64,000 nt of DNA from Chloroflexota bacterium (GTDB lineage Bacteria > Chloroflexota > Anaerolineae > Aggregatilineales > Phototrophicaceae): contig JAPOSR010000064.1 in NCBI GenBank assembly GCA_026709625.1, forward strand, positions 49,005 to 113,004, given 5' to 3'. The translations under genes were made by a program, and so were the position numbers. Positions within the stretch are counted from its first letter, which is position 1; the number at the start of each line of letters is the position of its first letter. Below, in pieces: positions 30,269 to 30,894 of the stretch. The notes under the pieces are model-generated. The model had not been told where the DNA came from and made no database searches. It worked only from the letters and a program-made list of their open reading frames with translations.

Positions 30269-30745
30269 TTAGTCGTTGTCTATGATTCTGAATGTGCGGC
30301 TGGTGGCGTAAGACAGCATGTAATAACCGTTGGGGAAGCGGTTGCCGCTATCCTCCGACATGGTTACGGTGACTGTTTCGGTGGGCTCGTCGTCCGAGTC
30401 ATTCAACGGTACGATATAGAACACGCTACGATCGGCTCCACTGGAGATCCTCTCTGTGGCACAATTCCCGCTGGGGCTTAGGTATCCGCGCTCTGCGCGT
30501 ACCCGATAGTCCACTCCCAGGGTTGCGCTGCCGCTGAAGCAGAGCCGGAAATGCGCTTCATGGCCATAACCGGCGCCAAGCGACACGCGGTTCACAAAAA
30601 ATGCCGCTGTGTCACCGACATAGCCGCCGAGGCCGGCTTCGCCTTCCGATGCGTTCCCGGAACCATGACTCCACAGAAAGATGACCATGTTCATGCCCTG
30701 CGCCTGGACAACGGGCAAGGCGACTCCAGCCAAAACGAAGAACAA
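30269..30745 (-). CDS. Secreted Calx-beta-like protein; the 5' end probably extends through the poly-C tract to ATG 30803
   Basis: GSATLGVDYRVRAERGYLSPSG...SVFYIVPLNDSDDEPTETVTVTMSEDSG (Calx-beta pattern); the TTG start at 30745 lies within a signal peptide whose upstream part crosses a C13 tract. Confidence 0.65.
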   Translation of the reverse strand: MFFVLAGVALPVVQAQGMNMVIFLWSHGSGNASEGEAGLGGYVGDTAAFFVNRVSLGAGYGHEAHFRLCFSGSATLGVDYRVRAERGYLSPSGNCATERISSGADRSVFYIVPLNDSDDEPTETVTVTMSEDSGNRFPNGYYMLSYATSRTFRIIDND

Positions 30746-30771
30746 AAGCAGGATGACTAAACGACTAATGC

Positions 30772-30784
30772 GGGGGGGGGGGGG
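30772..30784. repeat. Homopolymer tract G13 (C13 on the coding strand), candidate slipped-strand contingency locus
   Basis: AATGC(G)13TAAATTTACGAGACATCAT. Confidence 0.8.
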
Positions 30785-30894
30785 TAAATTTACGAGACAT
30801 CATACACCTCACTTATTTTTTTTCTTATTCGCAACTGTAGCCGGCAAGATAGCGCTTGTCAAGAAAAGCGAATGCGCTCGCGCCCCAGCAGTTG

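What the first reader, a model, noticed from the sequence alone, without database searches (positions are those of the whole stretch)
30745..30803. C13 tract inside the N-terminus of a secreted Calx-beta-like gene: one nucleotide from a complete signal-peptide ORF (candidate phase-variable gene, currently OFF)
On the minus strand, GTGAGGTGT-ATGATG (a good Shine-Dalgarno followed by ATG 30803) reads MMSRKFT then enters 13 C's. With 13 C's the frame ends as PPPPH-stop. With 12 (or 9 or 15) C's it reads MMSRKFTPPPRISRLVILLLFFVLAGVALPVVQAQ..., a textbook signal peptide joined in frame to the 30269 ORF. The arithmetic agrees: 30803-30745 = 58, i.e. +1 relative to the ORF. The ORF track only begins at an internal TTG because of this tract. 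An SD, an ATG, a signal peptide and a homopolymer that toggles the frame is the hallmark of a slipped-strand contingency locus.
Basis: partly seen in the sequence, partly recalled or inferred. Interest (0 to 1): 0.82.

Follow-up and report, generated by a model that had tools for sequence, protein, structure and literature searches.

The report
Poly-C switch in secreted-protein gene
A run of 13 C's sits between the start codon and the export signal of a small secreted protein in an uncultured Chloroflexota bacterium whose named relatives appear to be sponge-associated, and the same design recurs in dozens of genes across its genus, so it is very probably one of many on/off slippage switches, although switching itself could not be observed here.

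Summary
On the minus strand GAGG-TGT-ATG-ATG is followed by C13 (window 30772-30784). With 13 C's the frame closes after 12 codons; with 9, 12 or 15 it opens into a 176-178 aa protein with a signal peptide and a Calx-beta-type domain (fold). The window has no C/G run of 7-12, only the 13-mer and a 19-mer.

Comparative evidence supports the contingency reading. The genome's only other close family member has a C18 at the same place. In the genus, 30 of 177 assessable C/G>=10 tracts lie between an SD-ATG and a signal-peptide ORF, against 0.9% of random positions and 0 of 51 tracts in other families of the order. Orthologues keep the tract at the same codon with different lengths and frames. A Dam-like methyltransferase has a G-tract and occurs as open and shifted versions in many assemblies, including megabase contigs.

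Limits: no reads, no second strain. 'Currently OFF' is only the MAG consensus, and long tracts break this assembly. Orthologues of this gene in four sister species lack the tract.

The kind is known (Neisseria opa, Helicobacter oipA). The host lineage and the scale look undescribed.

The parts
30834..30862 (-). promoter-like site TTGACA-17-TACAGT (10 of 12)
   Evidence: consensus scan; the paralogue L052 reads TTGACA-16-TATACT upstream of its start by eye; not a test of function
30807..30810 (-). Shine-Dalgarno GAGG
   Evidence: sequence; the same GTGAGGTGTAT leader stands before the paralogue's start
30798..30803 (-). tandem start codons ATG ATG
   Evidence: sequence
30772..30784 (-). C13 homopolymer: proposed slippage switch; codes poly-Pro when in frame
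30701..30771 (-). signal-peptide segment (ISRLVILLLFFVLAGVALPVVQAQ), in frame with ATG only at 3n C's
   Evidence: aligned to the signal peptides of its homologues
30269..30745 (-). ORF as listed from internal TTG; mature part is a Calx-beta-type beta-sandwich domain
   Evidence: pLDDT 84.7; NCX1 CBD1 2dpk E 7.5e-6
63951..63969 (-). C19 tract directly upstream of the signal peptide of a large secreted protein: second contingency-like locus in the window

Best explanation
The C13 tract is a simple-sequence contingency locus. The gene has a promoter-like site, an SD and a start codon; then the C-tract; then the signal peptide and a secreted Calx-beta-type domain. Slippage in the tract during replication adds or removes C's. 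One length in three (9, 12, 15) gives full translation and export with a short poly-Pro n-region; the other two stop within 11-16 codons. It is one of a genus-wide set of such switches in these Chloroflexota, acting on secreted or surface proteins and DNA methyltransferases. Shown: the frame arithmetic, the recurrence of the architecture, orthologues of other genes with different tract lengths and frames. Inferred: slippage in vivo, export, and a role in host or phage interaction.
For: Frames. No C/G run of 7-12 in the window, then 13 and 19; about 0.7 runs >=10 expected genome-wide, 38-45 found. Own paralogue (45% identity) has C18 at the same position. Genus: 24 C-strand + 6 G-strand of 177 tracts between an SD-ATG and a signal-peptide ORF >=100 aa; random positions 58 of 6555 (C-strand only: p about 2e-19); other families of the order 0 of 51 (p about 6e-4). 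Orthologues with the tract at one codon: M..PPPP-RFSIIGIALAV in three species with C11/C13/C14, all in frame..ITPPPRK[P/F]VLILLP with C12 in frame and C11 out of frame; G10 out / G11 in frame. 12 of the 30 are in frame, near the 1/3 expected of drifting lengths. A Dam-like D12 methyltransferase with a Gly run from a G-tract occurs in full-length and shifted forms over dozens of assemblies including 2.6-4.4 Mb contigs.
Against: No reads, second strain or expression data. Orthologues of this gene in G004, G008, G009 and G015 have no tract, so it is not conserved for this gene. Most of the 177 tracts (136) do not fit the SD-ATG test. Long tracts in this assembly sit next to N10 gaps and contig ends, so lengths may be wrong by one or more.
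Confidence: 0.82

Rival explanations
1. Assembly or sequencing artefact: the true tract is a fixed in-frame length (for example C12) and the gene is simply on.
For: Short-read trouble at C/G tracts is evident in this MAG: G48-51 or C51 next to N10 gaps, contig ends in C/G runs, and at the paralogue the right-hand piece is an error-laden copy of the left flank.
Against: C13 lies inside a continuous contig with proper flanks. Tracts at orthologous codons recur in independent assemblies, including very long contigs. Even a true C12 would remain a slippage-prone tract.
Confidence: 0.2
2. A decaying pseudogene: the tract expanded and broke a gene that is no longer needed.
For: Consensus is out of frame; tract absent in orthologues of sister species.
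Against: Promoter-like site, SD, start, signal peptide and a full-length domain with no other stop or frameshift are kept; residues invariant in the family, such as C69, C95 and D79-Y80, are kept.
Confidence: 0.08
3. Tuning rather than on/off: the poly-Pro stretch (ribosome pausing, EF-P) or the tract's length adjusts translation or export, and frame loss is incidental.
For: All C-tract members read Pro runs in or near the n-region; three orthologues are all in frame with 11, 13 and 14 C's through compensating flanks.
Against: 18 of 30 N-terminal tracts are out of frame; G-tracts (poly-Gly) and tracts in methyltransferases do not fit a Pro-specific effect.
Confidence: 0.12
4. Translation starts downstream (TTG 30745 or ATG 30692), so the tract only lies in the 5' leader.
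For: Mechanical ORF call starts at TTG 30745.
Against: That start cuts the signal peptide's hydrophobic core; no SD is seen there; homologues keep the core and most keep a leader.
Confidence: 0.05

Closest known systems
Helicobacter pylori oipA/hopH (and hopZ) CT-repeat switch
   Same: A hypermutable repeat in the 5' signal-peptide region shifts the frame of an exported protein on or off (PMC10564699).
   Different: Dinucleotide repeat, outer-membrane beta-barrel, Campylobacterota; here a C homopolymer in the n-region before the core, coding Pro, in Chloroflexota.
Neisseria opa (CTCTT)n leader-peptide switch (from own knowledge)
   Same: Repeat inside the leader-peptide coding sequence toggles a family of surface proteins independently.
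   Different: Pentamer repeat; one paralogous family rather than many unrelated secreted genes.
Poly-G/poly-C contingency genes of Campylobacter, Neisseria and Bordetella (from own knowledge)
   Same: G/C homopolymers of about 8-15 in coding regions or promoters, many per genome.
   Different: Tracts there are not mainly placed just before the signal peptide; hosts are cultured pathogens or commensals.
Phase-variable DNA methyltransferases
   Same: Homopolymer or other repeats in methyltransferase genes switch methylation; a D12 gene with a G-tract here shows both frames.
   Different: A Dam-like enzyme in Chloroflexota; no methylome evidence here.

Membership tests
Simple-sequence (slipped-strand) contingency locus | repeat tract long enough to slip, far above chance | tested here: met
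   C13; shuffles 0.40 C9 words vs 16; run-length gap 7-12
Simple-sequence (slipped-strand) contingency locus | tract placed so that length change toggles the reading frame of a complete gene | tested here: met
   9/12/15 open, 10/11/13/14/16/17 closed
Simple-sequence (slipped-strand) contingency locus | tract length varies between related genomes at the same position | tested here: inconclusive
   met for other genes of the genus; for this gene the orthologues lack the tract and only the paralogue has it
Simple-sequence (slipped-strand) contingency locus | mixed tract lengths within one population, reversible switching | not testable with these tools
   no reads or isolates held
Simple-sequence (slipped-strand) contingency locus | target gene is surface-exposed, secreted or a modification enzyme | tested here: met
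   signal peptide here; genus set includes fn3, SH3, PKD, pectate-lyase-like adhesive and PMP-repeat proteins and a D12 methyltransferase
Calx-beta domain proteins (PF03160) | sequence match to the Pfam model | tested here: inconclusive
   no hit for the window protein; 4 of 23 family members hit weakly, best E 0.0013
Calx-beta domain proteins (PF03160) | Calx-beta fold | tested here: met
   AlphaFold2 model pLDDT 84.7; NCX1 CBD1 2dpk E 7.5e-6, TM (target) 0.73; integrin beta4 Calx-beta 3fso also found

The most novel reading that the evidence does not exclude
An uncultured, probably sponge-associated Chloroflexota genus carries a large set of phase-variable genes ('phasome'): dozens of C/G tracts per genome, many set in the n-region of signal peptides, partly as a re-used leader module ([Cn]GTAATATCA..., Pro-run + VIS..N) placed before unrelated secreted proteins, together with a switching Dam-like methyltransferase that could act as a global epigenetic switch.
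Probability: 0.55. Interest if true: 0.75.

Novelty: new member of a known kind. Interest (0 to 1): 0.62.

Why it matters
Slippage switches are known mainly from cultured pathogens and commensals of animals. A genus-wide set in uncultured Chloroflexota, aimed at secreted proteins and a DNA methyltransferase, would suggest that phase variation shapes long-term microbe-invertebrate or microbe-phage relations as well. It also warns that gene calls in these MAGs lose the N-termini of secreted proteins. The idea can be tested at once with existing long-read sponge metagenomes. The literature library held no paper describing contingency loci or phase variation in this group (absence in that library only).

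Tried and rejected
Homologue search for a strain variant of this gene: 22 proteins, none above 67% identity, so no conspecific with another tract length. Search with the SIIGIALAV family for tract variants: one protein (P0024) matches the G017 protein from MFIH on but starts after the tract, on a contig of 14,883 bp where G017's is 4,782 bp; suggestive of an out-of-frame strain, but a contig edge or gene-call choice cannot be excluded. Genome-contig scan with the family alignment: 4 Chloroflexota loci plus distant Calx-beta-type proteins, no new tract. SD-ATG-C9 pattern over 34 genus genomes: hits in 7, but the reversed control gave more in one genome, where an intergenic repeat dominates, so not used as evidence. 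PDB search by sequence: nothing. A pure artefact was considered and set aside because orthologous tracts recur in independent assemblies.

Full report
WHAT IS THERE. On the minus strand the sequence reads TTGACA-17-TACAGT (30862-30834), GAGG (30810-30807), ATGATG (30803-30798), TCTCGTAAATTTA, then 13 C's (30772-30784), then GCATTAGTCGTTTAGTCATCC.... Changing only the number of C's in a translation gives an open frame at 9, 12 and 15 (176-178 aa, MMSRKFT-P(n)-RISRLVILLLFFVLAGVALPVVQAQ...) and a stop after 11-16 codons at all other lengths from 10 to 17. Two points are refined: the second ATG has the better SD spacing, and the out-of-frame state is a property of the MAG consensus, not a known state of the cells.

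CHANCE. In the 64 kb window, C/G runs decline regularly from length 1 to 6; there is none of 7-12, then one of 13 and one of 19. Extrapolation predicts about 0.7 runs of 10 or more in the 3.24 Mb genome. The genome has 38 by one pattern and 45 by its mirror, which also counts those that begin at a gap or contig end.

THE PROTEIN. No Pfam hit by itself, but four of 23 family members touch Calx-beta weakly. The AlphaFold2 model (mean pLDDT 84.7) matches the Calx-beta domain CBD1 of the Na+/Ca2+ exchanger best (2dpk, E 7.5e-6) and also integrin beta4 Calx-beta. It is a single secreted domain of about 140 residues. Named homologues sit in Chloroflexota/Anaerolineae MAGs; isolate names such as RHO1 suggest sponge hosts, which I infer and did not verify.

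ORTHOLOGUES AND PARALOGUE. In four same-genus genomes the closest relatives (54-66% identity) have no tract; three have a normal leader in frame and one, G004, is itself shifted in the leader without a tract. The only other close copy in the window's own genome (45% identity, G000:C8:40714-41166) has the same GTGAGGTGTAT leader and a C18 directly before the signal-peptide core. At that locus the assembly has G48, an N10 gap and then an error-laden repeat of the left flank before C18. I read this as reads failing at a real long tract (inference). So the tract is a feature of this species' copies, gained after the split from the compared species, or lost in them.

GENUS-WIDE TEST. I gathered tracts of 10 or more C/G from the window's genome, same-genus genomes and genomes of other families of the order. 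Excluding those at contig ends or gaps, 177 genus tracts and 51 outgroup tracts could be judged. Test: an ATG with an SD-like word within 90 nt before the tract, frame open to the tract, a frame of at least 100 codons after it, and a hydrophobic stretch within the first 60-70 residues. 24 genus tracts pass with C on the coding strand and 6 with G; none of the outgroup tracts does; of 6555 random positions in the same loci 58 pass. The p-values treat tracts as independent, and the random positions were scored on one strand each, so the fair comparison is 24 of 177 against 58 of 6555; they are indicative. 136 genus tracts fit neither strand's start test; many of these are intergenic.

TRACTS AT THE SAME CODON IN DIFFERENT SPECIES. 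(a) M..PPP(P)RFSIIGIALAV...: C11 in G017, C13 in G023, C14 in G006, nearly identical flanks, all in frame through compensating flank changes. (b) ...ITPPPRKPVLILLPLFA: C12 in G007 in frame; its orthologue in G006 has C11, out of frame. (c) M[R/K]R[M/I]QIR.ALLFSL...: G10 in G007 out of frame, G11 in G022 in frame. (d) M[K/R]IF..IVLAL: G13 in G013 and G14 in G017, both out of frame. (e) A leader module [Cn]GTAATATCA..., read as Pro-run + VIS..N, precedes different secreted proteins in G013 (three) and G011 (two, plus a diverged third). Domains found in the targets include fn3, SH3, PKD, pectate-lyase-like adhesive, PMP-repeat and VCPO (chloroperoxidase-type) domains.

METHYLTRANSFERASE. A D12-class (Dam-like) gene has a G-tract between the FVGGGALFF motif and LSDxNxDL. 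It is in frame in G014 (G13; 285 aa, on an 897 kb contig) and out of frame in G013 (G11) and G009 (G13). In the protein database close relatives fall into full-length proteins with a Gly run at that place and shorter ones that start in the shifted frame just before the Gly run (such as MKEELIQRGGG-QAFLSD), including proteins on contigs of 2.6-4.4 Mb. My script's 'full/trunc' tally (44/33) mislabels a few proteins with a variant motif and I do not rely on the exact numbers.

HOW IT WORKS. Best explanation: a slipped-strand contingency locus, one of a set. Shown: anatomy, frames, recurrence, cross-species length and frame differences in other members. Inferred: slippage in vivo, loss of export when out of frame, selective benefit. 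Not known: tract length in the population. Closest precedents are repeats in signal-peptide regions of H. pylori oipA (PMC10564699) and Neisseria opa (own knowledge).

VERDICT. Reader supported on the mechanism; 'OFF' unproven. New member of a known kind, of raised interest because of the lineage and the number of loci.

Noticed in passing
window 63951-63969 (-): C19 tract directly before the signal peptide of a large secreted protein resembling tract-bearing genes in G013 and G023; an N10 gap and C51 follow just outside the window.
   Followed up: partly
L031 (G000:C54:100952), L112, L113, L174, L129: Dam-like D12 methyltransferase with a G-tract, in frame or shifted in different genomes: candidate switch of genome-wide methylation.
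   Followed up: partly
L279 (G005:C62) and L288 (G022:C8): Two further DNA-methyltransferase-like genes with G11 and G10 near the N-terminus (by motif, read by eye).
   Followed up: no
L124, L130, L146-L151 (G013), L074, L110, L116 (G009), L071, L238-L242 (G021), L281, L344-L351 (G016): At least 31 elements, mostly intergenic, with a C-tract followed by the near-palindrome GTATACATACTGTATCTATAC; absent from the window; function unknown.
   Followed up: partly
G000 contig ends and gaps, e.g. L012, L015, L018, L022, L142: Runs of 32-51 C/G beside N10 gaps or at contig ends: the assembly appears to break at long C/G tracts.
   Followed up: partly
L039 (G004:C270): Orthologue without a tract whose leader is shifted by one base relative to its relatives, so it may start at an internal ATG or hold a sequencing error.
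   Followed up: no
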